From an uncultured Clostridia bacterium (GTDB lineage Bacteria; Bacillota; Clostridia; Christensenellales; CALVMC01), in contig CALVMC010000006.1 of NCBI GenBank assembly GCA_944342015.1, positions 30,216 through 94,215 on the forward strand: a stretch of 64,000 nucleotides of DNA, given 5' to 3'. Under the pieces are notes generated by a model. That model was not told where the DNA came from. It made no database searches and saw only the letters and a list, made by a program, of their open reading frames with translations. Of the stretch, positions 1,726 through 64,000 are shown in pieces. Position 1 is the stretch's first letter. Each line of letters starts with the position of its first letter. Made by a program: the position numbers and the translations under genes.

Positions 1726-1743
1726 AAAATAAATTTTTTAGGC

Positions 1744-1840: not shown

Positions 1841-1852
1841 TTATTTATTAAA

Positions 1853-36300: not shown

Positions 36301-36491
36301 GAAAATTCCCGATTAATAAAATCGGATTGCTCTAAAAGACTTTCATCTTCAAAATTACTTGTGTTTTGCTGATTTACATAAAAAGACTCCCCAACCGACC
36401 CGCTGTCGGAAAAGGAGTCTTGATAACCGTTATTATCGTTATTTACTTTTAAAAATTCATCGGAATCAACGGACTCTCCGTCTTCAATCAT
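33312..36491 (-). CDS. Large acidic, disordered repeat-containing protein of unknown function
   Basis: A 1,059-residue protein I cannot assign. It is dominated by Asn, Asp, Glu, Ser and Lys, has no obvious signal peptide or membrane helix, and should be soluble and strongly acidic. Three copies of a short motif stand out, near residues 581, 668 and 730: QPFDPGAYLKNVINQNQN, QPFDASSYLKNLISSNQK and QDFDPGAYLKNIINQNQN. They are separated by acidic runs with RTIFDDEDEEDIK-type and KTIFDDDDEEE segments. The C-terminus has a more ordered patch (NILTYGYGWDDLYTANQEI). Its ATG overlaps the stop of the SPFH/zinc-ribbon gene (ATGA) with no Shine-Dalgarno site, so translation must depend on the upstream gene. 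One extra A in the A9 tract at the junction would fuse the two proteins in frame. Confidence 0.75.
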   Translation of the reverse strand: MIEDGESVDSDEFLKVNNDNNGYQDSFSDSGSVGESFYVNQQNTSNFEDESLLEQSDFINREFSDYGQNPPFENQANNSNGNIDLNDNSYGHDDLNTYNDNDLYGNSNLNPYNDDGLNNNDTNFHNEKDLFDNSENNGDILPNNLNRQGYENHLNGKENIEGSENLFNSNDGNFQNSESDFENSENGVDAFKNTIENKEGIFKDVNEKENTAGNENDNETFDKNSFAEINAETNGGALQNDDEEINNDYQFQSEDQDKDSINNNFLKDTRIAFQNKSENNDYNESENFENLQKANGLADENIGDDEVNSANEKSLAEQNSINTDTEIDDSQPKQSGVLSNRYSNNEDTEEKEENTEIDSLSEEDLKEEKEREINSEIAETEKKTVAGHAESEKKTEAENDESQEETEEESDKSKDVESEDFETNDIKSERDKNQDPKDFEDYNDGKEEIKNRSININLTNQFLSNLSKAQSNEDVEQEQSMSSDAEIEKKGNKNVLGKYSDFLEGLKTQAGVTDKKEDNLDIESDDSEDDADNTENIQTEKEDLSESDELNFSESKVYDNSNAENKEDIENSVDEKREFEPKQEQQPFDPGAYLKNVINQNQNSENIEPKEEVKRTIFDDEDEEDIKSYNKEDIRKLLFDDKEGEEQEEVQRESNSEEESAENKKEVSKEQESQPFDASSYLKNLISSNQKEGKEEEPREQTPKTFERTAENAGNISKPVEEKRGAESETKQEQQDFDPGAYLKNIINQNQNNEIKKDNLFADLSQNNLSDNSESDIEDASDDEMISKMMFRKMGIEDTEDDEEDESENVSDEKIDSSDIGNQKSSINNEIKDKPDKERKPAGKTIFDDDDEEEPDKTLREDSFAEQLLRKMQAMRVEREQGKNNFDTNEARYNPLSEYGNGRNYSSRTNEKANNDDRTNFESKQEIKETVQEEPVKQSISQEIKSDSFKESETRKDDISLNADISSKTGADNLNTKSENNNGYAKAQPTGYSHSFVDNILTYGYGWDDLYTANQEISDEEGLLNAFGVSNISYENGNANQQLSYDNNDPLKNIKKPEN
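34237..34303 (-). repeat. Direct repeat copy encoding a PFDPGAYLKN-type motif
   Basis: This stretch is nearly identical to 34684-34750: the shared core reads GGTATGCGCCGGGGTCAAAA in this copy and differs at a few bases in the other. A more diverged third copy is near 34425-34492. Repeats of this kind inside a disordered protein suggest expansion by local duplication. Confidence 0.75.
34684..34750 (-). repeat. Second direct repeat copy encoding a PFDPGAYLKN-type motif
   Basis: Partner of the copy at 34237-34303. It encodes QPFDPGAYLKNVINQNQN in the same frame, about 150 residues nearer the N-terminus. Confidence 0.75.
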
Positions 36492-39067: not shown

Positions 39068-39122
39068 TAGATATCGGCAAAAAAATATTATTAATTTGAA
39101 TATATAAATAAAAATTTACAAT

Positions 39123-39153
39123 AAAAAAACTCCGAAAAGTTCGGAGTTTTTTT
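39123..39153 (-). terminator. Terminator after the proximal B-type surface gene
   Basis: ACTCCGAA (39129-39136) and TTCGGAGT (39140-39147) form a perfect stem with a 3-nt loop, flanked by A- and T-runs on both sides. It lies 15 nt after the stop at 39169. Confidence 0.9.
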
Positions 39154-39168
39154 ATTTAACAGCGATAA

Positions 39169-42100
39169 TTATTTATTATCTTTTCTTGCTTTGAGCTGGC
39201 GCTCGATTTCTTCTTTTGAAACGCTTCTGTCTGCCTGTTTATAAGTACCTTGTCTAAGCTCGCTTACCATATTGGAGGCTTCGAATCTCGATTTTGAAGC
39301 TTTTCGTTGAGCGACAATTTCCATAGCTTTCTTTCTTCTCTTGATATTTATTATTACAAATATCAAAATTAAAATTGTAAGAACTATCGGAATGATTATA
39401 ATGCTTAACAACATTATTAAATAAATTGTTCCTATCTGCGAAGTTACGACTATATTGAAATCATTATTTTCCAATGTTTCAAGAAATTCGGCAGTCATTG
39501 TGACAGTAAGGATTCCGTTAGCATAGTTTACATTTTCATAAGTAGTTGACAATTCTTTTGCGTCCATTCCGTTGAAACTGAAACTTTTGATTTCCTGTCC
39601 GAAAGCACCGTTGAAAGTAAATGACAAAGTGTCACCTGCTTTCCAGCTGTCGGTGTTTCCGCTTGAATTGGAAACAACCAGTTCGCCCGAAGCACTAGTT
39701 AAATCTTCAATAACTGAAATTGCTATAGGTCTTGCTTCGAAATACAGCATAACCGTTCTTGATTCTGTAAGATAGAATTCCGCTATATTAGAATCTTCCT
39801 GATTGATTTCATCTTGGGATATTCCGATAAACTGTCTGAAATCGTAATATTCTCCGGGAAGAGCAGTAACTTTAATCAAAGTAAGATAAGGCATACTTTC
39901 GATATCTTCGATATTCACGGGGTCGTCGTATTCGCCTAAAATATCGTTATAAATTCTGATTTCGAATTCGCCCAAATCGTCTCCGATATCGGCAAGGACG
40001 ACATCGATATCGAACATTGTATACAATCTGCTAGCTATTACCAGTTCGCCGTTGTCGTCGATATAATTATCTAATATATAAAGGGTTATTTCGGCATTGT
40101 TAATAGAACCGTCAGTCGAATAGTCGCTTGCGTTAAAGGGAATAAATTCGCCCATATAATAAATTCCCCATGCATTGAATCCGTAACCTGCAATTTCGCT
40201 GATTTGACCTGTTATATAATCGCCTCTTGCAGTAACATAGTCAAGTCCGGATTCGAGACCTACGGTAGCACTGTCCATAGCGCCGTCTATTTCGGTGTGA
40301 TTTTCATCGACTATAGAATATCTTATACTGTACTTGATATAATCCATTTCTATATTGACGGTTTTGTTTGAGTCTAACTGCAAGGTTAATTTCTCGTTAA
40401 TAAGCTCGGTATTTTCGCCGTTCAATGTCAAGGCAGTTATTTCGAAATGATTATTAACCCACGGAATTATCTCTATAATATATCCGACGTCGAAGGACTG
40501 ATCGAACTCACTGATAAGCCTTGATACAGTTTCGGTTGACTGCATTACATAATTTTCATCATAAATATTTATTATTACCGAACCGTAATCATTGTCCCAA
40601 TCTGCAATATTGCCGATAGTTAAAATTAAAGTTGCGTCTGACTCGAATATTATCTCAAATACAATCTTGCCGTCGGTTACATATTTATCGAGATAATCGG
40701 CGGTACAAACAATAGTTCCTAAAACAGTCGAGCCTTGCGTATCTATATCTTCGGTTTTAACATTGCCGTTTTCGGTATAACGGTATCTGTATGTAACGAA
40801 CTTATAGACGCTGTCAGGATTTATGGAAATATTCTGCGCACTGATTACGTTTCCTACCGTAACAACCGCACTTTCCGTCGCCAATGTTATATCGCCCGGC
40901 TCCGGCGTCAATATCTCGCCCGAAGTATTATATAATTTGTATTCTACCGTATATTCTATTGCCTGAACATAGATAGTAAAATTATATTTTTCGTTTGCAT
41001 TGGTATTGGTTATAGTAAGAACCATTTTTGTTTTATCGTAATTATAATTTGCGGTATTTCCTTCTATCGGAGAACCGGTTGATTCATCTACGGGTCCTTT
41101 TGCTAGCTCGTAATGCTTTGTTAATATAATAGTGTATGTTTCCTGTTTTCCCGCTTCGATACTTATCGTATTTCCGAAATCTACCGATACTCCGCTTGAA
41201 TTAATTACGGTAACATAGGACGGGAAGGTATCAGCCGATAAATTGAAAGTTACCTCATATACTTCGATAAACATAGCTTTAAAGGTAAGAGACATATTAC
41301 CGCCGGAAGATTTTGCATAGTTGTGTATGAGCTGTTGGTTGATAAAAGCTTCGAAATTCAATTTATATACCGCACTTGTCGTCCCCTGAGAACCCTCAAT
41401 AAGAACCATACTGCTCTCGCCAACGGAATCGTATTCGCCGTCTATATTCTGTAACGCAAAATATACAAACGACGAGGTCTGGCCTTCATTGTTATTCGTT
41501 ATACTGATTCCGCTTAAATTATCTATGGTAAATTTATTATTTGTAGCGCCTGCAACATTAACCGCACTGCCATTAGGAATAATTATAGTATATTCTATCG
41601 CAGAATAGGAAACATAGATATCGGCTCCGTTTCTCAATGTCATTACAGTATTCGGCGATGAAACGGGCATTTCCGTATATTTATCGCTTGCTAAATAGGA
41701 ACCGTCTTCCTGTCTTGCTTTATATAATTCGCTTACATTATAGCCGACTCTTTTTATTTCATTGATATAACTATAACCGCTGTCGTCCTGTTTGCCGTTT
41801 TTAATGTTGTTGTAAGATAAAGTATCGGAAAAATAACTTATAATACTAACTACGGTTTCGGTATTCCTTTCATCGGCATTTCTTATAATCGAGTTATCGA
41901 ATATATCGAGATCGTCGCCGATGTTATTGTAGTATATATTAATCTCTTTCATCGTTGCCACGATAAGGAAAGGCTTACCGTCGTTTACGGCAGCGTCGAT
42001 TCCCCACGGCGTGGAAGAAGTGTTTGCATTGCCGCTTCTTACATCTTCGGTAACTCCCCATCCGTTAAAATTATCGATATCTTGTAAATCGCTGTAATTT

Positions 42101-45100
42101 ACGAATAAATTATCCGTTCCCGTACCAAAATCGTAATCGCAGATATTTGTTGAAGACGGGTTGAAGTTAGATGCCGAAGTCGAGGAAAATGCAGAAGAAC
42201 CACCTATTTCGTCAAAAGCTACGGTTTGCGAAAGTTTTGTTATATAGGTATCGTGAATACTGAGTGTTTTTTTATAACTTGTAGCGTTACTGTTATTTAC
42301 TATTGCGCCGAAATAATTTGCGTGTTTTGCCGATACATTCCCTTTATAATAATTATTTTTTGCGCTTGAATCTTCACTTCCTTGAAAATAGTCGAAATCT
42401 TGGGGATTTCCGCTGAAATAATAATTTTTAATTGTTACGCTTAAATCTCGGTAAGCATTGTCAAATTCTAAATATTCTACAAACAATGAAACATCTCCTG
42501 TCCCGTTTGCCGCAATCAATTTGCTGGTTACATAAATATCTTCGAAAAGAACGGTGCCTGAAACATCATAAAGACTCTGAGCAAGAGCTGAAACAGCCCT
42601 TCCTGCTGTCGTAATTTCGATTCCAAAGTAAAGACAAGCAACTCTTTGAACGGTTAGCTCTCTCAGTCTATTGGTAATACCTAAAATTCCGCCTGCAATG
42701 GTCTGACCGGTAATTGATTCGCCCACAAAATAACAGTCGGTCATTTTAAATCTGCTGTCAATGTTCGAGGTGGAAGAAACGCCACCCACTGCACCGCCTA
42801 CATCTCTTGACGCAATAATTTTATCAACATCCACATAACAGTTATTGATATTTACAGTACCTGCCTTTGCGTAATAAATATACCCGACCAAACCTCCGAT
42901 TTGTAAAGAGTTTATGTCGCCTACTTTCTCGCAATCCACATAACAATTGCTGAGCGTTAAGGAATTGAATCTTTCGGCATGACCAATAAGTCCGCCCATC
43001 GATCTAGCCTGAATACCCGTCCCGACACTTTCAACAGAAACATTACCCGTACTGTATGAGTCAGTAATTTCGACGGTTTCAGCGTTTCTTATATAACCTA
43101 TGAGTCCGCCCGTTGTAAGCGCGCCCGCTATGTTACCTGCGTTAAAGGAATTTTTAATAGTTACCGAATAAGCTGTTCTATCGTTAAAACCTATTCCTGA
43201 GAAGAAGCCTGCCGCACTTTGACTCATACGAGTTGAAATATTACCGTAATTTGCACAGTTTTCTACATATACTCCAAGAGGCGCACCGCCTGTAAAACCG
43301 CCTGCCCACGAAGCCTGGGTTTTGATATCGCCGTAATTGATGCAGTTAACCATGCTTAAACTTGTAATGGAATTACCTTGTCCGATAAATCCTGCGACAT
43401 CGTTTGACGTACAGGAAACGGAAGCTTTATTGACACAGTCCGTAAAGCTTGCGGTCGTCCCTGTCATATATCCTATAAAGCCTCCGGCAAAGGCTTCCGC
43501 AAAAACCGTTGAAAGAACTGTAACTACTTCTGCATCATCGCTTCCCGGTCTGTAAATGTTTATTGTGGGATATTGTTTATCTTTTATTTTTTCATTTTCG
43601 TAACTGATAACTCCGGTCATCGATACCGTACCGCTCACATTACCTGCAATGCCGCCGACCTTTCTGAAATTGGCGTAAACGAAACCGCTGTTGTAAGAGC
43701 CTTCCGACCCTTCGACAAATTCAAGGTTTCCGCCTGCATTTCCGACAATTCCGCCTATGCTTCCCGAAGCACTGCTTACGGTACTGTCAGTGGTTTTGAG
43801 CTGACTGTAAACATTACCTTCGTTATAAATATAAGCTTTTATACTAAGAGAAGCCATGGAGCCAAACAAACCGCCTATATAATTTGTCCCCGCTTTACAA
43901 ATGATATCTCCTGTATTGTACATTTCGCCGGAAATTACAAAGTTTGCTTTGCTGGTTCCGCCGATAATTCCTCCGACATAACTTGTGCCGGTTACGATAT
44001 CGGCTTCGTTTGCCCAGTTGGCGCTGAGCTCTATTGTGTTGCTGCCCGTGCCTTCTATAAATCCTATTATACCACCTGCGGTTGTAGCCGATTCGCTTGT
44101 CTCGATTGTTTCGGTATTTTTATAAGCATTGTCTTCTACAAGGTCGAGAGTTCCCCTTATACAACCTGCAATAGAACCTATATCGGCACTACCTGAATGA
44201 AAAGAGGTTATTGTTCCGAAATTTCCGTAAGTTTTGGTATCTATATCGGGGTTCCCTATGGTAAGTTTAACATGACCTTTTATGTGACCGTAAAGTCCGC
44301 CTGCATATCCGCAACCCGAGATATCCATATAATTCGTGTTATTTTTTAAAGTTATAAAGAAATTATCGTATAAAGTACCCGTTCCGTCTTCCGCAAGACC
44401 GTTACCGCCGACTATGCCGCCTATATAACGATAAGCCGATTTTATAACATTGTCAGTCCCTGAGGTTCCGTTAATACAGTTTTGTACAGTAACCCCTCCC
44501 GTTACATTAAAATTATTGTAATAACCTAAAATACCTGCCACATATGCAGCTGCTGTAGAGTAAGAACTTTCTTTAAAAGCCTCTTCGTAAGAGTAGGTGC
44601 CGCCGCCCGGTTTTTTCGTTCCTACCTTGTTCATAGTAGAAGCGTTATAAACCGAGCCGAAATTAGAACAGTTTTCTATAACTAAATTATTAATAGTAGA
44701 ATGAACCGCAGCAAAAATTCCTGCCGCCCTTCCTGATAAACATGCAATTGTTCCATAGTTTTTACACCCACTAAATACTTGATTTTCTATAGTAGCATAA
44801 GATATGCCGGCTATTCCGCCTGCGTTTGATTTAGCTGAAATATTTCCGTAATTTACACTATTTTTAATTTCAGAGTCTCCGTAAAGTACTCCTACTATTC
44901 CGCCCAGATTTGAAATGTCGAACATTTTTATATCCGCATGATTAACACAGGAGTCTATAACGCTACCGCTTTGAATTATACCCATTAATCCTCCTACATC
45001 GTATTGCGGACCTGACATGATTTCCATAAAATTATGGCAATTACTAATTTCAATTTGGCTATACACATATCCAAAAAGTCCACCAACGCCGCTTCCGGAA

Positions 45101-46530
45101 GCTTGAATGCTTGCATTAGGATCGCAATAATTTTCTACTGAATTATTGTTTGAGGCCCCGCCGTTATAACCGTTTACGGCATCAGACATAATTACATATC
45201 CTCTTACCGTTCCTATTATTCCGCCTACCGAGGCGGTTCCTTGAATATTTCCTAAATTTTTAGTGTTTCCGCTTATTTGTAAACTTGTAGAACTTCCCGA
45301 AAAAATTCCAATTATACCGCCTACAGCGCCCGAATTCGATTCGATATCTGCATTATTGATATTAGTCCCGCTAAATTCGCAATTCCCTTGTAGAGATCCT
45401 ACTAAACCTCCGGTATAACCGCTACCGGATAAAATATTTCCATAAACTGTATTGTCGACAAAAGAACCGTCAAAATTAGTATCTGTTAAGCCTACAATAC
45501 CTGCTACATTTCTTAGACTTGTTGCAATTAATCCTCCTTCGAAACCAGAATTATCTATAAGTCCGCCATTTGTTGCATACCCTAAAATTCCGCCATATCC
45601 TCTACTTGCAGATGAAGTACCTCCGTTTATGTTGAAAGTAAGCCCCCTTACATTAACGCTTGCTACCGAATACCCGTATTTCTTTGCTGCTAACGCTCCT
45701 AAAAAGTTGAGATTGCTTCCTGTTCCGTTATAATATACATTATAAAAATTCAATGCTAAAACGCTCCCTTCCAATTCGTTGAACAAACCGTTATTAGAAG
45801 CAAACCCCAAATATAAATTACTTATAGTCTTAAATGTATTACCTGTCGCATTTATCGAAGATACATTATCAAATATATTATTATCTTTTAAGTATTCGTT
45901 AACTGCTCTGAGCGGATCGGTTGTATTAGAATATTTTTTTCCGCCGCTTTGCACACCTGTAGATGTAGCAAAATTTGTATATTCGCTTATTGCAGTATAG
46001 TCATAACCTGATATATTGAAATTAACTTTTGACTGATTGGATACAACATATAATTTTGAAGCAAGATTAATATCTTTTCTTATTACAAAATAAGTATCTA
46101 GAGTATTGTAACTTGCGTATGTATAATCGGAACCGCTTTTTTTAGAAGCGTTGTTAATTGCTTTTACAAGCTGATCTGCCGTATCTATATAGTAAGGCTG
46201 AGCAAAAGTTCCCGCCCTTCCCGAGTTTATATTTTCATTTGAAGGACTGTATGATGTATTTATTGAACCCTGCCAATTACCGGCATTTTTAGCTGCAGTG
46301 TAAGCATTGGAAATTGCAGAACTTACGGTTCCGTTATACTCGGTAATGCTTCCACCGTAAATCGTTCCGGTATTTTCTGTATCTATTTCCGAATAAGAAT
46401 TATTTGTTATAAAATAATTATCTTTATTTGCAAACAGTACACCTGTAAAAAGTGCAATTAAAATTGAAAGCACCAATAATATTACTGATAATTTAAATAT
46501 TTTTCTATGTGCAAAATAATTTCCTTTCAT
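39169..46530 (-). CDS. Giant B-type membrane-anchored GLUG-like beta-helix surface protein (copy 1)
   Basis: A 2,453-residue protein. A hydrophobic segment at about residues 11-33 should export it. A module opening GTFAQPYYIDTADQLV then leads into a long array of beta-helix coils. These have recurrent GGIVG/GGLVG-type turns and NCxNxGxI-type strands, as in GLUG-motif proteins, up to about residue 1450. The second part (to about 2365) is a series of beta-sandwich bacterial-repeat domains. One membrane helix (YLIMLLSIIIIPIVLTILIL, from about 2369) is followed by a 57-residue basic cytoplasmic tail starting KRRKKAMEIVAQRKAS. There is no LPXTG sorting signal. It starts 17 nt after the A-type gene with AGGAGG upstream and ends at a strong terminator. 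It is a paralogue of the gene ending at 52295. The ligand or function is unknown; adhesion or self-assembly is a guess. Confidence 0.85.
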   Translation of the reverse strand: MKGNYFAHRKIFKLSVILLVLSILIALFTGVLFANKDNYFITNNSYSEIDTENTGTIYGGSITEYNGTVSSAISNAYTAAKNAGNWQGSINTSYSPSNENINSGRAGTFAQPYYIDTADQLVKAINNASKKSGSDYTYASYNTLDTYFVIRKDINLASKLYVVSNQSKVNFNISGYDYTAISEYTNFATSTGVQSGGKKYSNTTDPLRAVNEYLKDNNIFDNVSSINATGNTFKTISNLYLGFASNNGLFNELEGSVLALNFYNVYYNGTGSNLNFLGALAAKKYGYSVASVNVRGLTFNINGGTSSASRGYGGILGYATNGGLIDNSGFEGGLIATSLRNVAGIVGLTDTNFDGSFVDNTVYGNILSGSGYTGGLVGSLQGNCEFSGTNINNADIESNSGAVGGIIGIFSGSSTSLQISGNTKNLGNIQGTASVGGIIGTVRGYVIMSDAVNGYNGGASNNNSVENYCDPNASIQASGSGVGGLFGYVYSQIEISNCHNFMEIMSGPQYDVGGLMGIIQSGSVIDSCVNHADIKMFDISNLGGIVGVLYGDSEIKNSVNYGNISAKSNAGGIAGISYATIENQVFSGCKNYGTIACLSGRAAGIFAAVHSTINNLVIENCSNFGSVYNASTMNKVGTKKPGGGTYSYEEAFKESSYSTAAAYVAGILGYYNNFNVTGGVTVQNCINGTSGTDNVIKSAYRYIGGIVGGNGLAEDGTGTLYDNFFITLKNNTNYMDISGCGYAGGLYGHIKGHVKLTIGNPDIDTKTYGNFGTITSFHSGSADIGSIAGCIRGTLDLVEDNAYKNTETIETSESATTAGGIIGFIEGTGSNTIELSANWANEADIVTGTSYVGGIIGGTSKANFVISGEMYNTGDIICKAGTNYIGGLFGSMASLSIKAYIYNEGNVYSQLKTTDSTVSSASGSIGGIVGNAGGNLEFVEGSEGSYNSGFVYANFRKVGGIAGNVSGTVSMTGVISYENEKIKDKQYPTINIYRPGSDDAEVVTVLSTVFAEAFAGGFIGYMTGTTASFTDCVNKASVSCTSNDVAGFIGQGNSITSLSMVNCINYGDIKTQASWAGGFTGGAPLGVYVENCANYGNISTRMSQSAAGFFSGIGFNDRTAYSVTIKNSFNAGNIAGALTTGGLIGYIRNAETVEITDSYSTGNVSVESVGTGIQARSMGGLIGHAERFNSLTLSNCYVDCEKVGDINSLQIGGLVGYIYYAKAGTVNINNCYVDVDKIIASRDVGGAVGGVSSTSNIDSRFKMTDCYFVGESITGQTIAGGILGITNRLRELTVQRVACLYFGIEITTAGRAVSALAQSLYDVSGTVLFEDIYVTSKLIAANGTGDVSLFVEYLEFDNAYRDLSVTIKNYYFSGNPQDFDYFQGSEDSSAKNNYYKGNVSAKHANYFGAIVNNSNATSYKKTLSIHDTYITKLSQTVAFDEIGGSSAFSSTSASNFNPSSTNICDYDFGTGTDNLFVNYSDLQDIDNFNGWGVTEDVRSGNANTSSTPWGIDAAVNDGKPFLIVATMKEINIYYNNIGDDLDIFDNSIIRNADERNTETVVSIISYFSDTLSYNNIKNGKQDDSGYSYINEIKRVGYNVSELYKARQEDGSYLASDKYTEMPVSSPNTVMTLRNGADIYVSYSAIEYTIIIPNGSAVNVAGATNNKFTIDNLSGISITNNNEGQTSSFVYFALQNIDGEYDSVGESSMVLIEGSQGTTSAVYKLNFEAFINQQLIHNYAKSSGGNMSLTFKAMFIEVYEVTFNLSADTFPSYVTVINSSGVSVDFGNTISIEAGKQETYTIILTKHYELAKGPVDESTGSPIEGNTANYNYDKTKMVLTITNTNANEKYNFTIYVQAIEYTVEYKLYNTSGEILTPEPGDITLATESAVVTVGNVISAQNISINPDSVYKFVTYRYRYTENGNVKTEDIDTQGSTVLGTIVCTADYLDKYVTDGKIVFEIIFESDATLILTIGNIADWDNDYGSVIINIYDENYVMQSTETVSRLISEFDQSFDVGYIIEIIPWVNNHFEITALTLNGENTELINEKLTLQLDSNKTVNIEMDYIKYSIRYSIVDENHTEIDGAMDSATVGLESGLDYVTARGDYITGQISEIAGYGFNAWGIYYMGEFIPFNASDYSTDGSINNAEITLYILDNYIDDNGELVIASRLYTMFDIDVVLADIGDDLGEFEIRIYNDILGEYDDPVNIEDIESMPYLTLIKVTALPGEYYDFRQFIGISQDEINQEDSNIAEFYLTESRTVMLYFEARPIAISVIEDLTSASGELVVSNSSGNTDSWKAGDTLSFTFNGAFGQEIKSFSFNGMDAKELSTTYENVNYANGILTVTMTAEFLETLENNDFNIVVTSQIGTIYLIMLLSIIIIPIVLTILILIFVIINIKRRKKAMEIVAQRKASKSRFEASNMVSELRQGTYKQADRSVSKEEIERQLKARKDNK

Positions 46531-46547
46531 AATTATCCTGCCTCCTG

Positions 46548-49500
46548 TTACCTGTTTTTAGCGTTTTTCTTCGCTTCTTTTTTGGCTTTTTTAGCAGCTT
46601 TAATATCGCTGCCTTTTATCTGAGTAACATTTTCACCTGTTTTCAGTCTGCCGACGATATTACTTTCGCCGATAAATTTCATTTTTTCTTTATTTTCTTC
46701 GAGAAGTTCTTCTTTAATCTTTTTATTCTGCTTCTGCGAAAGAACCATTAATATTACTAAAATAGCCACAAGCAAAAGAATACCTGCGCCGCCCCCTATA
46801 ACGATACCCATAACAAGAGGCGATATTTGAGTAGTAACAACGCTTGTCATTTTATTGTCGGTAAATCTGTCGAGCCATTCTGCGTCGATCGTTATGCTGA
46901 CGGTGTTGCCTGAAAATACAATGTTGTCCTGTACATTTTCAGCAAGAACATCTATGCCGTTTATAGTCCAAGTATGTATTGCATAACCGTTATTGGGCGA
47001 GAAAGTCAGAACTACGGTATCTCCTATTTTAATGTTTCTCGATTTTGCGGAAAACTCTCCGTTAACATTTTCGCCGGAAGCGTCTATTATTTCAAGGAAA
47101 TATTCCGTAGGCTTAAAAGACACGAGAATTATTCTGTCGGAACTTAATTTTACATTTACGATATTATCGTCTGCCGTTATTTCGCTTGCGGTAATTTGCC
47201 CTTTAAATTCATTAAATTCATAATATTTAGCGGGCGTTGCCACGATTTTAATAACTGTATTTGCGTTAAAGATATAAGTTTCACCGATAACCGCATTAAA
47301 CGGAGTTTCGCTGTCGCCTTCTACGATATAGCAAGCAACGGAACCTGACGAAATATCGTCGATATTAACGGTAAAGGTTCTCTGTCTGCTGTAAGTTGCG
47401 GTAATTGTTGCGATATTTTTTTCATTGAAATATTTAACGACGGCATCTTTGGTAAGAGTAAAAGATTTTATTTCATCGTAGCCGACTTCGATTTCGCTTC
47501 CGCTGTTCAAAGTTAATTTAATATTCAAAAGTTTATATTTGCTTTCAGGCGGAAGTTCTAATGTCACGATATCGCCGAGTTTTGCGATATTTGTTTTTTC
47601 GCCGTTTACGAAAATTCCGCCGTCAATTACGCCTATTGTAGAACCGCCGTCGGTTTTGGCAATATACTTAATTGTATAAGTTACATAACCGAACTGACCG
47701 AGTACAACGGTATCTTCGCTGGCTACAAAATTGAGCTGCGTTCCTATTATAGTATAAAGGGGGCCGTCTACTGAATAAGTATCGAACTTATAAGCGTCGC
47801 TTGCGATAGCGTCTATTCTGATTTTTACCCCGCTTTTAAGATATAAAGATACTGTGCTTATTATTACGGGTTTTTCGTTTTCTTCTCCGTCTCCTGTATT
47901 CTCTTCAAGTCCAGCGTAAGCGCTTTCTATATAGCCGTTACCTTCGTCAATGAATATGGTAAGGTATCCGCCCTCTGAGGAAGTTACGTTTATAAGGTAA
48001 TATTCATCGTAAACAAGATATATTACGACTTCGTTTTCGTAGCTGTAATTGTATAAGAAGTTTTCGTCGAAAGTAATAGCATCGTTTCTTAAAACATATC
48101 CGTCGCCCTGACTTAAATCGTTGCTTGTTAATGTATAATTTCCGCTTGTCCTTCTGTTTAGAATTCTGAGTTCGGAAAATCTGTATCTTTGCGTCTCGAA
48201 AATGTCTATATTTTCCGATAAGGTACCGTTTACATTGAAAGTTCCGCTTGTTAAACTTACATATTCCGAAGGGTTGCCTATGCTGTTCTGATTGGCGTCG
48301 ATTGCATATATCGTAAATGTTAAGTCCATTGCCCTGTATTTAACGGTTATGGTTATTACAGACCCTTCGTATCTTGAATCCAACGACAGCGCAAATGACT
48401 GAGCAGTGTATTTTTCCTCTTTTGCGCTGATACCTGATACTGCCGGATAATTTACCGTATATTCTTCAACCTCATAGTAACTTGCAAGGGTAGAACTTAC
48501 AGTATAATCTGTTCCTGCATACGCAGCGGAATTTCCGCCGAAATTCATTGACACGCCGTTAACCTGAACCACGCCACGGGAAACCCCATCTACTTCAAAC
48601 GATAAAGTAATTATGTTACCTGTTTTCGGAACAAGGGTTATAACTCCGTTTGAATCCCAACCTTCGGTCATTCTGCTGAAAACTTCATATAGCGATAATG
48701 TGGTTCCCGTATCTCCATAAATTACCGGCGCATAACTTCCGTCGGAAGTTAAAACATTCCAACCTGCAAAATTGAATGTATCACCGCTTACAGTGCTGTC
48801 ACCTGACGCCACTATGTTATAGTTCGAAGAACTTTCTATCGTAAATGTTCCGTCATAAATTTTAGAATCTCCGTTGTCTTCCTTTATTGTAACTTCCGCT
48901 CCGCCGCTGACATTTGTCAACGCACCGCCTATCGTTCTTGTTATACCGGCTATTTTTATAGTATAAGGCGCACCTACATAGTTTGCGTATATTACCATAT
49001 CTCTGAGTCTTTGAACGGGAATGGAATCGCCGTTGGCGTAACTTGTACCGCTCCCGTCTTCACTCAATGTCCAGTTGTTTACTTTGTAACCGTATTTTGC
49101 GTCTTCATTATATACTGTATTGCTTAATGTATAACTGCCTGTTCCGTAAAGAACAATAATAGTTTCGTTTTCTATTCCGACAGTATTATAATCGAAAGTC
49201 AATTCTATTTCATCAATAGCTCTTATGTAAGGAAGACCGTTATTGTAACCGGGAACGATTCCCCAGGTTTCATCGGAACCGAAATCGAAGCCTGCAAAAT
49301 CAGATTGATTTACAGAGCCTACCAAATTGCTTGTGCTTTCGCTTATTCCGGTAAGATTGAACTGATATGAACTTCCGTTTCCGTTTTTATTTACAATAGA
49401 ATAAGGCGTGCCCGAACTGTAATACGCATAAAAGTTAGAAACATTTAATTCCGGCTTAGCATTAGCGTTATTATAAATCAAAGCCGCAAAAGAACCTTTC

Positions 49501-51860: not shown

Positions 51861-51889
51861 AAATAACAACTCCTTATATAGAATTGTAT

Positions 51890-51912
51890 ATAATCTTGAA
51901 AGACAAGATTAT
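51890..51912 (-). promoter_or_regulatory. Perfect inverted repeat at the 5' end of the A-B transcript
   Basis: ATAATCTTG (51890-51898) and CAAGATTAT (51904-51912) are a 9-bp perfect inverted repeat with a 5-nt centre. It begins within a few bases of the predicted transcription start and ends before the ribosome binding site. It could be a 5' stabilising stem-loop or a repressor operator. Confidence 0.7.
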
Positions 51913-51922
51913 CCATGAGTAT

Positions 51923-51951
51923 ATTATATATCTATTATAAAATAAAGTCAA
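51923..51951 (-). promoter_or_regulatory. Sigma-A promoter of the A1-B1 surface protein operon
   Basis: On the minus strand, TTGACT (51951-51946), a 17-bp spacer and a perfect TATAAT (51928-51923), about 60 nt before the A-type start codon. Confidence 0.85.
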
Positions 51952-52238
51952 TAGACATATAATAAACAAAATATTCCAAAAAATTATCACAAATTTGAGA
52001 TATATTTATTCAATAAGCTAAAATTTCTTGATAGATAATATAAATAAGAATATTAAATGATTTAATTTTGATATAAAGGTATAAATATATAATACTAAAA
52101 TTTATACTTAATATAAAGATAAATATATATAATAAAAGATTCAATTTTAATAATGAAATTTATTATTTTATAAAAGTGCGGAAACAATAACGAACAGAAA
52201 AACAGTATGAATAAATACTATATTAATAAGAAAAAAAT
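51952..52238 (-). other. Extremely AT-rich spacer between the two surface-protein cassettes
   Basis: About 290 bp that is almost entirely A and T, without any open frame worth noting. Short imperfect inverted repeats such as AATAATGAAATTTATTATT occur. It may be an UP-element-like or bending region for the A1-B1 promoter, but nothing specific is visible. Confidence 0.5.
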
Positions 52239-52264
52239 AAAGCCCGATTTGCAAATCGGGCTTT
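52239..52264 (-). terminator. Terminator after the distal B-type surface gene
   Basis: AAAGCCCGATTT (52239-52250) and AAATCGGGCTTT (52253-52264) make a 12-bp perfect stem with a 2-nt centre. It is followed by TTATTTTTTT in the minus direction, 30 nt after the stop at 52295. It separates the two cassettes transcriptionally. Confidence 0.92.
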
Positions 52265-52294
52265 AAAGTGAAATATTTTTTAAATTAAAAGCAA

Positions 52295-55200
52295 TTATTT
52301 ATTATCTTTTCTTGCTTTAAGCTGTCTTTCTATTTCCTCTTTGGAAACATTTCTGTCCGCCTGCTGATAAGTGCCTTTTTTAAGTTCGCTTACCATACTG
52401 GACGCTTCGAATCTTGACATAGAAGCTTTTCTCTGAGCAACGATTTCCATAGCTTTTTTTCTTCTCTTGACATTGATTATAACGAAAATCAATATAAGAA
52501 CGGTAAGCACGATAGGAACGATAATAATGCTGAGAAGCATAACGAGATAAACCGTACCGATTTCGGAAGAGACTGCAATCTGGAAATCTTGAAGTTTAAA
52601 GCTTTCCAAAAAGTCGATGGTCAAGGTGACGGTGAGAACTCCGTTAGCGTAAGTAATATTGTCGTAAGTGGAAGCCAATTCCTTAGCGTCAATGCCGTTT
52701 AATGAGAATGAGTCGATCTCTTGACCGAAAGAACCTTCGAAGGTAAACGATAAAGTATCGCCGGCTTTCCAAGTATCGGTACTTCCGGAAGAGCTTGAAA
52801 CAATAAGCTGACCGGAAGCATTCGAAAGGTCTTCCGTTAAAGAAGTCTCGATATTTTTAGCCCGGAATTGGAGCAGAACGGTTCTTGATTCGGTAAGAAG
52901 GAATTCTGCGACCAAAGGATTTTGAGCGTCGACTTCTTCGTTGTAGATACCTATGAACTGAATGAAGTCATAATAATCGCCGTCCACAGCGGTAATTTTG
53001 ATTCTTGAATTGAAAGGCAGAACTTCGAGTTCGGCGGCTTCGACTTCATCGAAACGATCAAATGTATCGTTATAAATTTCAACCCTGAACTGACCTAAAT
53101 TATCGCCGGTATCGGAAATAGCGAAGTTAATATTAAAGAGAGTAAACAATCTGCATACAACTATAATCTGATTATCCTCATTGATATAACTTTCCAAGGA
53201 AGCGACATCGATATTTCCGTTATTAAGGGTACCGTCGGTTGCGAAAGAGTCGGAAGAGAAAGGAATAAATATATCCCCGACCAAAACCCCCCATGAGTTA
53301 AAGGCGAAGCCTGCAATTTCACCCATAGAGCCTGTAACGATATCGCCTGTTTTAGTAATATAACTATTGCCCGATTCAAGCTGAGCGGTCATATTTTCGT
53401 TTGCGCCGTCGATTTCGTTATTGTTCTCGTCGATTACGGAATAAGAAACATAATATTTTATGTAATCCATTTCAATTTCCAACGACTGATTTCTATCGAT
53501 AATTAAAGTGATTTTTCCGTTTGACAAAGAGGTATCGGAATTGTTGAGAGACAGTCTCGTAATTTCGAAATACTGATTTGCAAAAGGAACAACTTCGATG
53601 ATATAACCGATATCGAAAGCTTCATCGAACGAACTATAAGATTGATTTAAAGTGGTCTCGCTTTGCAAAACATAATCGGAATTGTAGACATAGATTAAAA
53701 CATAACCGTAATCGTCGTCCCAATGGTCAAAATTAGAGATTGAAATGTTTACCCCGACATTAGACTCTAATAATATCTGAATGGTAATGGTCTTACTCTG
53801 ACTGTCGGCATATTTATCGAGATAATCGGAGGAGCAGATAATAGAACCCAAAGCGACGGAATTTTGGGTATCGATATTCTCATAAACCGTAGAACCGTTA
53901 ACGGTATAAGCGTACCTGTAATTCAAGAAAGTGTAAATACTGCTCGGGTTGATATAAATACTCTGACCGCCTGCAACATTACCTATTTGGACTTTTTGCG
54001 AAGGATAAGTAAGGCTTACATCTTCAAAAGAAGGTGAAATAGGATCGCCGAAAGAATTTAAGAGCTCGTAGTTAATGGTATATACGGTAGCCTTAATGCT
54101 TATTTCAAAATTATATGTCTCTCCTTCCGTGCAGTTTAAGATAGTTATAGTTTGCAGAGTACTGTTGTACAAATAACCGTTATCGGAATTTCCTTCAAGA
54201 ACCTGATTGCCGTTTGCTTTGAAATTTTCCGCATCAAACTCATAATGTTTAGCGATAGATATAGTAAAAGTTTCAGATTGCCCTTCCTGAATACTGATAA
54301 CCGATCCGAACGAGACTGCGACGCCGCTCGAATTTGTAACGGTAAGATATGAAGGGAAGGTTCCGTCGGCAAGAGTAAAGGTAACTTTGTAAACGGGAAC
54401 GAACATTGCTTTGAATGTAAGAATATTTTCCGAAGAATAACTGTATAAAATCTGCTGATTTATAAAGTCTTCGAAATATAAATTATACACTGCGTTGGTG
54501 GTTCCTGCCTCTCCCGAAATAAGAACCATTTTATCTTCGCCTATTGCGTTAAAGACAGCTGGTGCGCTTGAGGGAACTTTTAAAGCAAAGTATACAAAAG
54601 GTGCAACCGATTCGGCAGTGTTGATGTTTTCGAGATATATATCTGTCGATTTTAAATTGAAACTGTTGTTGCTTGCTCCCACAACCTTGATTTCTTCGCC
54701 GTTATCGAGAGAAATGGCATAGTTCACAAGTTCGTAATCGACATAGAATACCATATCGTCGAAAATAGTGAAAACCTTATACTCATCGTTTTTCGGTATT
54801 TCCGTATACTTGTTAGCCTCTAAGTAACTTCCGTCTGCCTCTCTTGCCTTATAAAAATCCGTTACCTCATAGCCTACTCTTTTGATTTCCTTTAAGTAAT
54901 CGTAGCCGCTGTAATCCTGAGCGCCTTCTTTTAACTGATTATAAGTAATAGTATCGGTTATATAAGTAATGACAGTGACAACGGTTTCCGTTGCGATTTC
55001 GTCACTTCCTCTTATAACGGTGTTATCGAATATATCGAGGTCGTCGCCTGCGTTGTTATAGTAAATTACTATATCTTTTCTCAAAATATCCATAAGGAAA
55101 GGTTTTCCGCCGTTTACCGAAGGATCGATACCCCAGGGGGTGAGAGCAGTATCGGCGTTTCCGCTTCTGACATCTTTGGTAATACCCCAATTTTCAAATG

Positions 55201-59695: not shown

Positions 59696-59711
59696 AATTA
59701 CCGTCCCCTTA

Positions 59712-62700
59712 CTATTCATCTTTTTTTGCGGCTTTTTTTGCAGCCTTTTTAGCCTTTTTGGCAGCTTTTATATCTTCGTCGCTGATTTGCGTAACATTTT
59801 CGCCCGCTCTCAATCTGCTTACTATATTGCTTTCGCTGACAAACTTCATTTTCTCCTTATTTTCTTCGAGAAGTTCTTCTTTGATCTTCTTGTTCTGTTT
59901 CTGAGAAAGTATCATCAGCACAATTAGAACGGCAACGAGAATAACTACTCCTAAACTTCCTCCGATAACAATACCGAGAATAAGAGGCGACAGCGTAGTT
60001 TTAACGACGCTCGTTATTGTGTTGTCGGTAAAGGTATCGAGCCAGTTTTTATCGAGAGTAATAGTTACCGTATTTCCTGAAAATACTATGTTTTCCTGTA
60101 AATCGGAAGACATGACATCTATACCGTTAACCGTCCAATCTCCGATTGCGTAGCCTGTTTTAGGCGAGAAGGTAAGAATGATTTTATCGCCTATTACCGC
60201 AGTTTTCGAATTTGCGGAAAAGTCGCCGTCAACCTTGCCTGAACCGTCCACAACTTCGATATTGAATTCGGTGGCTTTGAAAGAAGCAAGGATAATACGG
60301 TCTGCATTTAATTTAATGTTAACTATATTAGCGTTTTCGGTAAGTTCGCTTGAAGTTATCTGTCCTTTAAAACCGGTAAACTCGTAATATTTTGCAGGCG
60401 TCGCAACTATTTTTATAACGGTATTGGAGTCGAAATTATAAGTTGTGCCTAAGACAGCTTCAAAAGGTGTTTCCACATCGCCGTTAACAACATAACAATT
60501 GATACTTTCATAAGATCCGGTCTGAGAATCGGTACTGATACTGAAAAGTCTTTGTCTTACAAATGTAGCGGTAATGGTGGAAACCGATTTGCTGTCGAAA
60601 TAAGTACTTATTATTTCATTGGTCAGTTCAAAAGAATCTATTGTATCGTAATCGATAGCTGTTTCAGTGCCGTTTGAAAGAGTGACTTTTAAACTTATAA
60701 ATCTGTATTTGCTCGGGTCGGGAAGAATGAATGTTATCGTATCGCCGAGTTTTACGGTATTAGAAAGTATTCCGTTAACATAAATACCGCCGTCTATCGA
60801 ACTGATATTGGAACCGGTATCGGTTTTTGCAATATACTTCAATGTATAGGTTTTGAAGGTAAAGTTTGCCACTATTTCGGCATCTTCGCTTAACACAAAA
60901 TTTATTTGCGAACCTATTACGGTATAAAGAGGTCCTTTAACAACATTATATCCGTTGCATATATAAGCGTCGTTTGCAAAAGACTCCGCTCTCAAACTTG
61001 AATTTGCTTTTATAAATAATGATATTTCTTTTATAACCTCACCTTTTTCATCATCACTGCTTTCATCACCGTCTTTGATTTCGGCGCCGAGAAGGGCAAC
61101 TTCTACATAACCGTTACCTTCATCTGCATAGAGAAATGTATATCCGCCGTCCTGAACAGAAAATTTTATTTCGTAATATCTGTCATACACGAGATATACA
61201 ATAATCTCGTTGTTATAAGCATAGTTATACAAATTCATTTCGTCGAAAGTCAACAAACTGTTCTGGAATACATAGTTAGCATTATTTTCGTCATCACTCA
61301 TATTAAGTTCGTTTGCGCTGTAAACGAGATTTTCAGATGTTCTTCTGTTAGCTATTATCATTTCGGAAAATCTGAATCTGTCCGATTCGTAAATGTTTAT
61401 ATCGTCGGAAAACATTCCGTTTATCGCAACGGTTCCCGAAACCATGCTTGCATAATCGCTTGCGTTCCCTATGGAAGCCAAATTGGAATCTACCGCATAA
61501 ATGTTAAATATTATATCGACAGTTTTATATTTTACGGTAATTGTGATAACCGATCCTTCATAGGCGGAGGCCAAATTCAATTCAAAAGATTTTGCGGTTA
61601 TAATTTCATCTCTTGCGCTTTGGCCTACTACGCTAGGATAACTTATAGTATATTTTTCTACTTCATAATAAGATTCCACTGTCGAGTTGACAACATAATT
61701 TATTCCGGCATAAGCCGCATCGGTACTACCGAACGCCATAGTGCTTCCGTTAATCTGAATAGAACCGTGTTCTTCCCCTTCGAGTTCAAAAGCAAGGGTG
61801 ATAATACTGCCGGTTTTCGGAACCAATGTAATGACTCCGTTTGTATCCCAGCCTTCTACCATATTGTTGAAAACTTCACTGAGCGATATTGTCGTATTGT
61901 TGTTTCCGTATGCGACGGTCGAATATGTTCCGTCGGAAATTAAAACATTCCAACCGGCAAAGTTATAAGTCGTTCCGCTTACCGTACTGTCACCTGACGC
62001 TACAAGAATGTAAGAGGAAGCGTTGTCTATCGTAAATGTTCCCTGATATGTTTTTGAAGTTTCGCTTGTTTCTTCTTTCGAAACTTCGGTATCGGTGCTT
62101 GTTTCGTTAAGAGCGCCGCTGATTGTTTGAGTTATTCCTTCTATCTTTATTCTGTAAGGTGCGGCAACATAATTTGCATATATTTCTATATCCCTGAGCC
62201 TTTCTATCGGAAGTTTGCTTCCCACTCCGTATTGCGTACCGCTACCGTCGCTGCTTAAAGTCCAATAATCTACAAGATATCTGTAATTTGCCTTTTCGTT
62301 GTAATCTTCGCTGTTTACCGTGTAATTGCCGTCGCCATACAGTATTACGATTGTTTCGCTTGCAATGTTGCTCCTATTGTAGTTGAATGTCAGATTAATT
62401 TCGTCGATTGCTCTTAAATAAGGAAGTCCGTTATTATATGTGGATACCAATCCCCATGTTTCATCCGCTCCGAAATCGAAACCTGCAAAATCCGACTCGT
62501 CCACCGTACCCGATATGTTAACATTGGAATTCGTGACGGTAATTGCGCTGCTTGACGCTCCTACATTGTTCTGTGTTGTTCCATCTTCTGAATAAGCATA
62601 AAAATTGTTTACTTCGAGCAAGGGCTCGTCAGCCGTTTGAAGAGATACATTTCCTGCAAGCGTTCCTTTATTCGTGCCGAAATTCAATGTAAGCGTGCCA

Positions 62701-64000
62701 GAATTGTAAACATTTTCAACCAGCATTTTTCCTTCTTTATGTTTGCTTGACGAAATTATTGTTCCGAATATACCGCCTGCATAATTAGCACCGTTTACTG
62801 CGCCTTTGTTGTAACAGTCTTGCATTAATGTATAATTATCTATCATTTTAGCATTCAACTGCCAAGCGCTTCCTACTATTCCGCCTGCGTTATTACCGCT
62901 GACAGAACCTATGTTAACGCATCTTAAAAATGAAGAATTAGTGCTTCCCGACGCATCGTATCTGCCGGCTATTCCGCCTGCTACCGCAGAAGCATATCCT
63001 GCCCCGCTGGTGCTTATGCCGGTTGCCGTTATGTTACCTTCGTTATAACAGTCGCTTATGGTTGTGTCGAAAGTCGACCCGCCGAAATTTCCGAATATTC
63101 CGCCTACAAAATTATAGCCGGAAACTTCGCCGTTATTAAAGCATCTTGTTATTCCGGTCTTTGCCGCATATCCTATAACTCCTCCGACCTCCGCTGCGCT
63201 TAACGAATGTACATATCCGTTATTTTCGCACTCATTGACATTGGCTGAAAAAGACTGACCTACAACTCCGCCTATTCTTATGGTATTTGTCTTATACTCG
63301 TCTTTAACTTCGCCGTAGTTCTTGCAATTGGATATGGTTTTATATCTTGTCGAACTACTTTCCTGGTCTATTATTCCCACTATACCGCCTATACCTGTCG
63401 TATCCGAAGCGAGATCGGCAACTTCCGGAGAGGTTCTTACAAGTCCGTAATTCAAACATTCGCTCACCGTTACCGATTGACCGGTATGAATCCTGCCTAA
63501 AATGCCGCCTATACCGACAATTCCTTCGACATAGTCCCCGTAGTTAATACATCCCGATACCGTTCCGCTTGAAATCCTGCCTATAACGCCGCCTGCCGTA
63601 TATCCTTCTACCGAACCGTAATTTATGCAGTCCGATACTTCAACGTTCAACGCATAACCTATTACGCCGCCATTATTCGGATTGCCGCTGTTTTTCGTTA
63701 CCAATCCGTAGTTTTTTAAATATTTTATCTTGTTCGTTTCAAATTGCGTAAGGCCTTCGAACTCTCCCGAAACTCCCCCCGTAAATACAGAGTCGCTCTT
63801 TATAAGGGCATAATTTGTAAGCCTTTCTGCAAAGTAACCCTTGCCGTATCCTATAACGCCGCCAACCCTTGAATTTGAAGTAAAATTACCTACTACATAA
63901 GAGAACTCTTCACCGGCCGCACCTTGAGAGCCTACGGTTATATCGTAAAATCCGCTTCCTGCCGTACTTTGTCCCGCAAATAAGCCTACATAAACATCGG
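59712..64000 (-). CDS. Giant A-type membrane-anchored GLUG-like beta-helix surface protein (copy 2, 5' end outside window)
   Basis: A paralogue of the A-type gene at 46548-51860. The frame stays open to the window edge: upstream of 63704, where the codon is an internal TTG, it reads DVYVGLFAGQSTAG and SRVGGVIGYGKGYFAERLTN. These match the other copy around its residue 340 onward, so roughly 340 residues are missing. About 1,430 residues are present: GLUG-like coils (GGIVGIIDQESSSTRYKTIS, ECENNGYVHSL), bacterial-repeat domains, a membrane helix (LGIVIGGSLGVVILVAVLIV) and a tail almost identical to copy 1 (KKIKEELLEENKEKMKF, ESNIVSRLRAGENVTQI) ending in a Lys/Ala run. The B-type copy 2 gene follows after 16 nt. 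Confidence 0.85.
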   Translation of the reverse strand, partial: DVYVGLFAGQSTAGSGFYDITVGSQGAAGEEFSYVVGNFTSNSRVGGVIGYGKGYFAERLTNYALIKSDSVFTGGVSGEFEGLTQFETNKIKYLKNYGLVTKNSGNPNNGGVIGYALNVEVSDCINYGSVEGYTAGGVIGRISSGTVSGCINYGDYVEGIVGIGGILGRIHTGQSVTVSECLNYGLVRTSPEVADLASDTTGIGGIVGIIDQESSSTRYKTISNCKNYGEVKDEYKTNTIRIGGVVGQSFSANVNECENNGYVHSLSAAEVGGVIGYAAKTGITRCFNNGEVSGYNFVGGIFGNFGGSTFDTTISDCYNEGNITATGISTSGAGYASAVAGGIAGRYDASGSTNSSFLRCVNIGSVSGNNAGGIVGSAWQLNAKMIDNYTLMQDCYNKGAVNGANYAGGIFGTIISSSKHKEGKMLVENVYNSGTLTLNFGTNKGTLAGNVSLQTADEPLLEVNNFYAYSEDGTTQNNVGASSSAITVTNSNVNISGTVDESDFAGFDFGADETWGLVSTYNNGLPYLRAIDEINLTFNYNRSNIASETIVILYGDGNYTVNSEDYNEKANYRYLVDYWTLSSDGSGTQYGVGSKLPIERLRDIEIYANYVAAPYRIKIEGITQTISGALNETSTDTEVSKEETSETSKTYQGTFTIDNASSYILVASGDSTVSGTTYNFAGWNVLISDGTYSTVAYGNNNTTISLSEVFNNMVEGWDTNGVITLVPKTGSIITLAFELEGEEHGSIQINGSTMAFGSTDAAYAGINYVVNSTVESYYEVEKYTISYPSVVGQSARDEIITAKSFELNLASAYEGSVITITVKYKTVDIIFNIYAVDSNLASIGNASDYASMVSGTVAINGMFSDDINIYESDRFRFSEMIIANRRTSENLVYSANELNMSDDENNANYVFQNSLLTFDEMNLYNYAYNNEIIVYLVYDRYYEIKFSVQDGGYTFLYADEGNGYVEVALLGAEIKDGDESSDDEKGEVIKEISLFIKANSSLRAESFANDAYICNGYNVVKGPLYTVIGSQINFVLSEDAEIVANFTFKTYTLKYIAKTDTGSNISSIDGGIYVNGILSNTVKLGDTITFILPDPSKYRFISLKVTLSNGTETAIDYDTIDSFELTNEIISTYFDSKSVSTITATFVRQRLFSISTDSQTGSYESINCYVVNGDVETPFEAVLGTTYNFDSNTVIKIVATPAKYYEFTGFKGQITSSELTENANIVNIKLNADRIILASFKATEFNIEVVDGSGKVDGDFSANSKTAVIGDKIILTFSPKTGYAIGDWTVNGIDVMSSDLQENIVFSGNTVTITLDKNWLDTFTDNTITSVVKTTLSPLILGIVIGGSLGVVILVAVLIVLMILSQKQNKKIKEELLEENKEKMKFVSESNIVSRLRAGENVTQISDEDIKAAKKAKKAAKKAAKKDE

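What the first reader, a model, noticed from the sequence alone, without database searches (positions are those of the whole stretch)
39169..64000. Tandem duplication of a two-gene giant surface-protein operon
A2-B2-terminator is followed by promoter-A1-B1-terminator. Each A gene (about 1,770 aa) precedes a B gene (about 2,460 aa) by 16-17 nt, and A resembles A and B resembles B between copies. Fixed pairing and order suggest that A and B proteins work as a unit, perhaps a heteromeric surface fibre or adhesin, and that the unit itself was duplicated. I know of no described A-B system of this kind. It occupies about 25 kb beside the ribosomal supercluster.
Basis: partly seen in the sequence, partly recalled or inferred. 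Interest (0 to 1): 0.75.

Follow-up and report, generated by a model that had tools for sequence, protein, structure and literature searches.

The report
Paired giant surface proteins, swappable tips
An uncultured bacterium carries two tandem copies of a two-gene operon for giant, likely surface-anchored proteins; in related database sequences the first part of one of them, predicted to be its outer end, comes in two very different versions on an almost constant rest, while the short, predicted inside tails hardly change, which suggests a paired, fast-diversifying cell-surface fibre.

Summary
Two A-B units lie in tandem on the minus strand. The upstream A gene is cut by the contig end; a congener (G001) has the whole A1-B1-A2-B2 array, starting just after a 5S rRNA gene, so there are two units and no more upstream. 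A and B are distant paralogues: N-terminal helix, GLUG beta-helix (modelled in A2), stalk, one membrane helix, basic tail. (1) Tails are conserved by selection, not recent conversion (B1/B2 tail 54/61 identical, dS 1.09; ectodomain 45-50%), and match only these four proteins of the assembly. (2) B2 is dimorphic: residues 40-700 exist as two types, 44-46% identical, on a stalk 93-100% identical; one type I and one type II protein share their last 1,227 residues. (3) A1 and B1 diverge between the two genomes at the same height above the membrane, a hint of side-by-side packing; for A2/B2 there is at most a faint sign in synonymous sites and none in protein. Full-length A and B occurred in 2 of 61 genomes, both of one genus. 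A heteromer is plausible but untested; adhesion is inferred. I call it a new variant of known GLUG beta-helix surface proteins.

The parts
59712..63998 (-). A1: giant GLUG-type surface protein of unit 1, 3' part only (1,428 codons; cut at window and contig end)
   Evidence: congener copy complete, 1,768 aa
52295..59695 (-). B1: 2,466 aa giant GLUG-type surface protein of unit 1
   Evidence: ATG and 16-nt gap
46548..51860 (-). A2: 1,770 aa giant GLUG-type surface protein of unit 2 (calls that count from the TTG at 51869 give 1,773)
   Evidence: Flg_new_2, 28.4 bits, cut-off 23.6; Glug at cut-off
39169..46530 (-). B2: 2,453 aa giant GLUG-type surface protein of unit 2
51923..51951 (-). promoter-like site before A2, TTGACT-17-TATAAT; the congener's A1 has the same hexamers and spacing and a shared upstream motif
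52238..52265 (-). terminator-like hairpin with T run after B1
39120..39156 (-). terminator-like hairpin with T run after B2
49470..51047 (-). A2 GLUG region, about residues 275-800, modelled as a parallel beta-helix (block-mean pLDDT 54-96, mostly 70-96)
42679..45699 (-). B2 GLUG-like region, about residues 278-1284 (28 GGxxG-like motifs; not modelled)
44431..46413 (-). B2 residues 40-700: dimorphic N-terminal part (this genome carries type I)
60369..61718 (-). A1 variable stalk segment (about residues 1101-1550 of the congener's A1; window coordinates approximate)
53396..54298 (-). B1 variable stalk segment, residues 1800-2100
46551..46829 (-). A2 transmembrane helix and basic tail (predicted)
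39172..39459 (-). B2 transmembrane helix and 61-residue basic tail (predicted)
59715..59939 (-). A1 end of transmembrane helix and tail
52298..52522 (-). B1 end of transmembrane helix and tail

Best explanation
The locus is two tandem copies of a two-gene operon, each predicted to make a pair of giant proteins, A and B, that are likely anchored in the membrane by one C-terminal helix and would stand side by side on the cell surface as a fibre whose outer end likely binds something outside and is likely under pressure to change. Shown: the gene order, the duplication of the unit, paralogy of A and B, the class-wise conserved tails, the two allele types of B2 and their four combinations with a second variable site. 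Predicted: promoters, secretion, the GLUG beta-helix (modelled for A2), the membrane helix, tail inside. Inferred: A and B are made from one transcript and pair through stalk, membrane helix and tails rather than tips; the conserved basic tails dock to a shared cytoplasmic partner; outer modules are exchanged between strains by recombination, with phage or host antibody as the likely selecting force; the binding target is unknown.
Against: No physical interaction was tested. The height match is clear only for A1/B1: A2/B2 give pN rho -0.24, and pS rho 0.30 (1 of 21 rolls reach it, best of 12 slides at register 0). For A1/B1 it is weaker in pS (0.46; 3 of 21 rolls reach it, best slide at register 1); it is one of 12 comparisons and may only mean that one domain type tolerates change. 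B2 type II occurs with an ordinary A2 (P0003/P0012, linked only by equal contig length), so tips need not touch. The C-terminal half of B2 could not be modelled (mean pLDDT 39.8), and B's beta-helix was not modelled at all. Foldseek alone gave no match at E<=0.001. dN is below dS in every region (a few 75-codon windows have pN above pS, on small counts): relaxed constraint could explain part of the divergence. The organisms behind the database proteins are not known.
Confidence: 0.5

Rival explanations
1. A and B are independent adhesins that merely share one transcript; each acts alone and the array is simple tandem gene-family growth (A to A+B, then A-B to two units).
For: A and B are paralogues. 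Glug matches are common in the order (31 of 61 genomes), and in 10 chosen loci giant GLUG-rich genes were adjacent in 1. B2 can change its outer part without A2 changing.
Against: Fixed A-before-B order in both units and both genomes; only four classes among the 22 database homologues; class-specific conserved tails; A1/B1 height-matched divergence.
Confidence: 0.3
2. A/B form a structural coat (S-layer-like), not an adhesin; high expression and membrane anchoring matter, binding does not.
For: Near-consensus promoter-like sites, position after a ribosomal RNA operon in the congener, no sortase found, giant acidic ectodomains.
Against: The strong two-type polymorphism of B2 and segment types in A1 and B1 are more than a coat needs, although coat proteins can also vary. 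Expression level, S-layer domains and lattice were not tested.
Confidence: 0.13
3. A/B are sensors: the ectodomain senses a ligand or surface and the conserved tail signals inside.
For: Tail conservation far above the ectodomain and restriction to these four proteins of the assembly.
Against: The tails are only about 60 residues, basic, without a match over a curated cut-off; the operon as read holds only A and B.
Confidence: 0.07

Closest known systems
GLUG-motif beta-helix proteins (Pfam PF07581), with the beta-helix of Gram-positive IgA1 metalloproteases and B. ovatus BACOVA_03286 (PDB 3n6z) as nearest solved folds
   Same: GLUG repeats at the family cut-off in A2 and, with neighbours, B2; A2 modelled as a parallel beta-helix with best structural match to 3n6z and IgA1 proteases
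   Different: No HExxH in A or B; C-terminal membrane helix and tail; paired genes
Fibrillar adhesins (survey PMC8286594; passages read)
   Same: Long protein, variable part N-terminal and distal, stalk towards a C-terminal anchor
   Different: No LPXTG-like motif and no sortase found in the genus; predicted membrane helix with a conserved tail; no known adhesive family detected
Listeria-Bacteroides/InlB B-repeat proteins (Pfam Flg_new, Flg_new_2)
   Same: A2 carries Flg_new_2 above its cut-off in the stalk
   Different: No leucine-rich-repeat family detected; B1 and B2 gave no such match at E<=1
Dimorphic surface antigens, e.g. Plasmodium DBLMSP/DBLMSP2 (PMC10919680; abstract read)
   Same: Paralogous surface antigens in which one domain has two deep allele lineages on a more conserved rest
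   Different: A bacterium; type II here is no closer to the paralogue B1 (45%) than type I is (46%), so no sign that conversion from B1 made it
Chlamydial polymorphic membrane proteins (PMC10715098, PMC11166332; search listing only)
   Same: GG-repeat beta-helix surface antigens
   Different: Those are autotransporters (listing); here a predicted single membrane helix. Their gene clustering is recalled, not from a call

Membership tests
GLUG-motif beta-helix proteins (PF07581) | Glug repeats over the Pfam cut-off | tested here: met
   A2 20.5 bits (cut-off 20.5), B2 21 bits with neighbours; A1 and B1 only below the cut-off, and a whole-protein Pfam scan of A2, B1 and B2 lists no Glug
GLUG-motif beta-helix proteins (PF07581) | parallel beta-helix fold | tested here: met
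Gram-positive IgA1 metalloprotease | HExxH zinc site (motif recalled) | tested here: not met
   0 matches in the 8 window and congener sequences (A1 of the window incomplete) and in P0012, P0015
LPXTG sortase-anchored adhesin | C-terminal LPXTG-like motif and a sortase in the genome | tested here: not met
   no motif in the last 200 residues of A2, B2, B1 and the congener's A1; sortase 0 of 2 genomes in the genus (G000 is 85.6% and G001 about 95% complete)
Fibrillar adhesin | known adhesive domain at the distal end | tested here: not met
   no adhesive family among Pfam or NCBIfam matches of A2, B1, B2, P0012 (A1 not scanned; NCBIfam on A2 and B2 only); so 'works like', not 'is'
Fibrillar adhesin | demonstrated binding to a ligand | not testable with these tools
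   needs an experiment
S-layer protein | abundance and lattice on the cell | not testable with these tools
   uncultured organism; SLH and CWB2 families were not searched in the genome
Heteromeric A-B surface complex | physical A-B interaction | not tested
   no multimer prediction available; only indirect evidence

The most novel reading that the evidence does not exclude
A lineage-specific two-protein surface fibre: A and B beta-helix proteins stand in parallel, joined by stalks, membrane helices and class-specific tails that dock to a dedicated cytoplasmic partner, while strains exchange whole outer modules (up to about 1,200 residues of B2) by recombination. It would be a bacterial counterpart of dimorphic parasite surface antigens, in duplicate, with each unit varying at a different height.
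Probability: 0.3. Interest if true: 0.75.

Novelty: new variant of a known kind. Interest (0 to 1): 0.55.

Why it matters
A small-genome uncultured bacterium (congener titled 'uncultured Eubacteriales bacterium') spends about 25 kb, some 1.7% of a 1.44 Mb assembly, on these four genes, so their job probably matters. The locus gives a testable case of how a bacterium in which no sortase was found may hold giant surface proteins, of paired beta-helix fibres, and of old alternative allele types kept on a constant stalk, a pattern described for malaria antigens. The tip types would be ready markers for strain-level phage or antibody selection in metagenomes.

Tried and rejected
Rejected: IgA1 protease (no HExxH); sortase-anchored adhesin; recent gene conversion between B1 and B2 as the cause of tail identity (dS 1.09) or conversion from B1 as the source of B2 type II (45% to B1); a silent type II cassette in G000 or G001 (none found; G000 is 85.6% complete); assembly chimera as the sole cause of type II (three separate clusters, 92-94% alike, with different downstream forms); more A-B units upstream (5S rRNA stands 757 bases before A1 in the congener).

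Led nowhere: profile search of PDB sequences (only 3n6z at E 0.078); viral contigs (14 stretches matched a pattern, none encodes a relative); structure of the B2 C-terminal half (mean pLDDT 39.8, not used for a fold search). Literature searches: none of the papers listed describes this A-B pair by title or abstract start; several searches listed only a small part (15 of 139, 8 of 7,793, 10 of 3,506, 8 of 12), and subscription papers are not held, so this is no proof of absence. Of three papers opened I saw passages of two and the abstract of one.

Dropped rows: P0006 (E 9e-7), a Flg_new_2 protein that matches 44% of the query region at 27%, was left out of the A family after reading it. Results were discarded: my script took one stretch from the first to the last of several matches, in mixed frames; redone. 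The Glug listing was cut ('more matches are not listed'), so pairing outside the genus was read from 10 loci chosen for large hits, not from all 31 genomes with a match.

Against my reading: A2/B2 show no height match in protein and a weak one in synonymous sites; A2 shows no two-type pattern; dN is below dS in all regions; linkage of database proteins rests on equal contig lengths; the model of A2 rests on 8 sequences.

Full report
What is there. Reading the minus strand, the window ends with A1 (cut) - B1 - terminator - promoter - A2 - B2 - terminator. A1 runs off the window, and the contig ends at the same base (C6 is 94,215 bases; the window is C6:30216-94215). A-to-B gaps are 16 and 17 nt. 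A1/A2 are 55% and B1/B2 46% identical.

The congener. Of 61 genomes searched ('relatives', own genome included), full-length A and B occur in 2: the own genome and G001, the only other held member of the genus. Its contig C5 has the length (96,955) and the genes of CASFOZ010000005.1 ('uncultured Eubacteriales bacterium'). It carries A1-B1-A2-B2 complete in the same order and begins with a 5S rRNA gene, 757 bases before A1. So the array has two units, with none further upstream, and follows a ribosomal RNA operon there, which would explain why contigs break at this point. Upstream of A2 (both genomes) and of A1 (congener) the same promoter hexamers, spacing and an upstream GGAATA motif recur: the promoter appears to have been duplicated with the unit.

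Orthologues and paralogues. Between G000 and G001, A1 is 84.9% (1,423 residues compared), B1 86.7%, A2 92.1% and B2 94.2% identical; within G001, A1/A2 are 54.1% and B1/B2 47.9%. So the duplication is older than the split of the two genomes. Five ribosomal-cluster neighbours are 97-100% identical in protein with dS 0.05-0.28; the next two downstream genes, a Band_7/zinc-ribbon protein and a 1,059 aa protein without a family, are 85% and 70%. A and B are related to each other in the C-terminal half (probability 98.7%).

Anchoring. Sortase PF04203 was not found in either genome of the genus and was found in 14 of the 31 genomes searched. Transpeptidase PF00905 is present in 6 of 6, so a wall is expected. 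The fibrillar adhesin survey PMC8286594 (passages read) reports no known anchor in nearly half of such proteins; a membrane helix is the simple reading here.

Tails. Between B1 and B2 the tail is 54 of 61 identical with dN 0.06 and dS 1.09; the ectodomain regions have dN 0.42-0.52 with dS 2.4 or saturated. Between A1 (congener) and A2, 45 positions of helix end and tail are 37 of 45 identical with dN 0.09. Synonymous divergence speaks against recent conversion. A profile of the tails finds only these four proteins in the own assembly at E up to 10. A and B tails share a faint pattern (13 invariant columns in 6 rows, 4 of them A and 2 B). This points to a dedicated partner inside, which I could not identify.

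Distribution. In 5.8 billion proteins a search with the A2 C-terminus gave 6 hits, 5 of them A (3 A2-like, 2 A1-like) and one unrelated; two searches with B2 regions gave the same 17 proteins, 9 B2-like and 8 B1-like (in one search only the 7,989 best candidates were scored). The word-based search can miss remote relatives, and the source organisms are not named. Some A and B hits share a longest-contig length (30,802: P0003 and P0012; 14,209: P0005 and P0019), as do B1 and B2 hits (98,714 and 30,287): consistent with linkage, not proof. In 10 loci of other families chosen for large Glug-related hits, 9 hold an ORF of 500 aa or more with at least 5 GGxxG-like motifs; in 1 of 10 (L062) two such ORFs overlap in one direction, in another (L064) two lie apart with two genes between; 3 of the 9 have a C-terminal membrane helix. 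So the ingredients are common in the order, while the duplicated A-B array was seen in one genus only.

Allele structure. Mean pairwise difference among 11 B2 sequences is about 10-35% per 100 residues up to residue 1500, 2-9% over 1501-2300, 0.8% over 2301-2400 and 0 in the last 53. The cause is mainly two types over residues 40-700: type I in 8 of 11 (both genomes, P0007-P0011, P0014), type II in 3 of 11 (P0012, P0013, P0015); within type 92-97% identical, between types 44-46% (37-39% over 180-640), while 1501-2357 is 93-100% identical regardless of type. A second site, 1330-1400, has a long and a short form; all four combinations occur (I-long 3, I-short 5, II-long 1, II-short 2), as recombination would give, though a repeated indel is not excluded. 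Type II is 45% identical to B1, type I 46%: the types are about as far apart as the paralogues. A1 has two types over 1101-1550 (4 sequences) and B1 two to three over 1800-2100 (10 sequences); A2 shows none in 5.

Do A and B touch? Between G000 and G001, A1 and B1 both show their highest synonymous divergence 300-450 residues above the membrane helix and raised protein divergence over about 150-525, in homologous parts of the stalk (A1 1260-1410 corresponds to B1 1960-2104); B1 synonymous divergence is also raised down to the membrane (pS 0.38-0.43). Most of the several kilobases between the two segments are lower (pS mostly 0.02-0.33). A2 and B2 have only single high windows (pS 0.60 at the membrane in A2, 0.54 in B2). 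Along 22 windows the A1/B1 pN profiles correlate (rho 0.68; 0 of 21 rolls reach it; best of 19 slides at register 0), pS less (0.46; 3 of 21 rolls reach it; best slide at register 1). Of the other five pairs the only sign is A2/B2 in pS (0.30; 1 of 21 rolls; best slide at register 0), with pN -0.24. This was one exploratory analysis of 12 comparisons. In the three linked or presumed linked A1-B1 pairs the types do not contradict each other (P0005 has the G001 form of A1; its presumed partner P0019 is 85% like the G001 and 80% like the G000 form of B1), too few to count. B2 tips change without A2 changing in kind (A2 of G000, G001 and P0003 are 87-95% alike in all three regions compared). My reading is contact at stalk, membrane and tail, not at the tips.

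Verdict. The pair is a new variant of GLUG beta-helix surface proteins, notable for unit duplication, likely sortase-free anchoring with selected tails, and dimorphic tips. Habitat and target are unknown; the selecting force (phage, antibody) is inference.

Noticed in passing
G000:C2 around 116174 (locus L038); G001:C2 around 122888: A further GLUG protein in an open frame of 5,994 aa (5,998 in the congener) in a 1.44 Mb assembly.
   Followed up: no
L034:5104-10803 and L033:1120-4986 (G000:C4): Two more giant Flg_new proteins with GLUG-like motifs (1,899 and 1,288 aa), each with a hydrophobic segment well inside the chain and a long C-terminal part after it; they do not match the A/B tail profile.
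   Followed up: partly
window 33312-36491 (-): 1,059 aa protein without a Pfam (E<=0.01) or NCBIfam (E<=0.1) match, overlapping the end of a Band_7/zinc-ribbon gene by 4 bases; only 70% identical in the congener, dN 0.18, faster than A/B on average.
   Followed up: partly
window 1742-1842 (-): SAM riboswitch just upstream of the S-adenosylmethionine synthetase gene at 532-1677.
   Followed up: no
L062:5701-13858 (G029:C2): Two overlapping same-strand giant ORFs with GLUG-like motifs (1,443 and 1,284 aa) in another family of the order: a pair-like arrangement without C-terminal membrane helices.
   Followed up: partly
window 9483-13790 (-): Next to the carbamoyl-phosphate synthase small chain, the large chain appears cut: a 775-aa ORF with large-chain families and a 328-aa ORF upstream that overlaps it by 83 bases; a frameshift or a split gene. 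The 328-aa ORF was not scanned.
   Followed up: no
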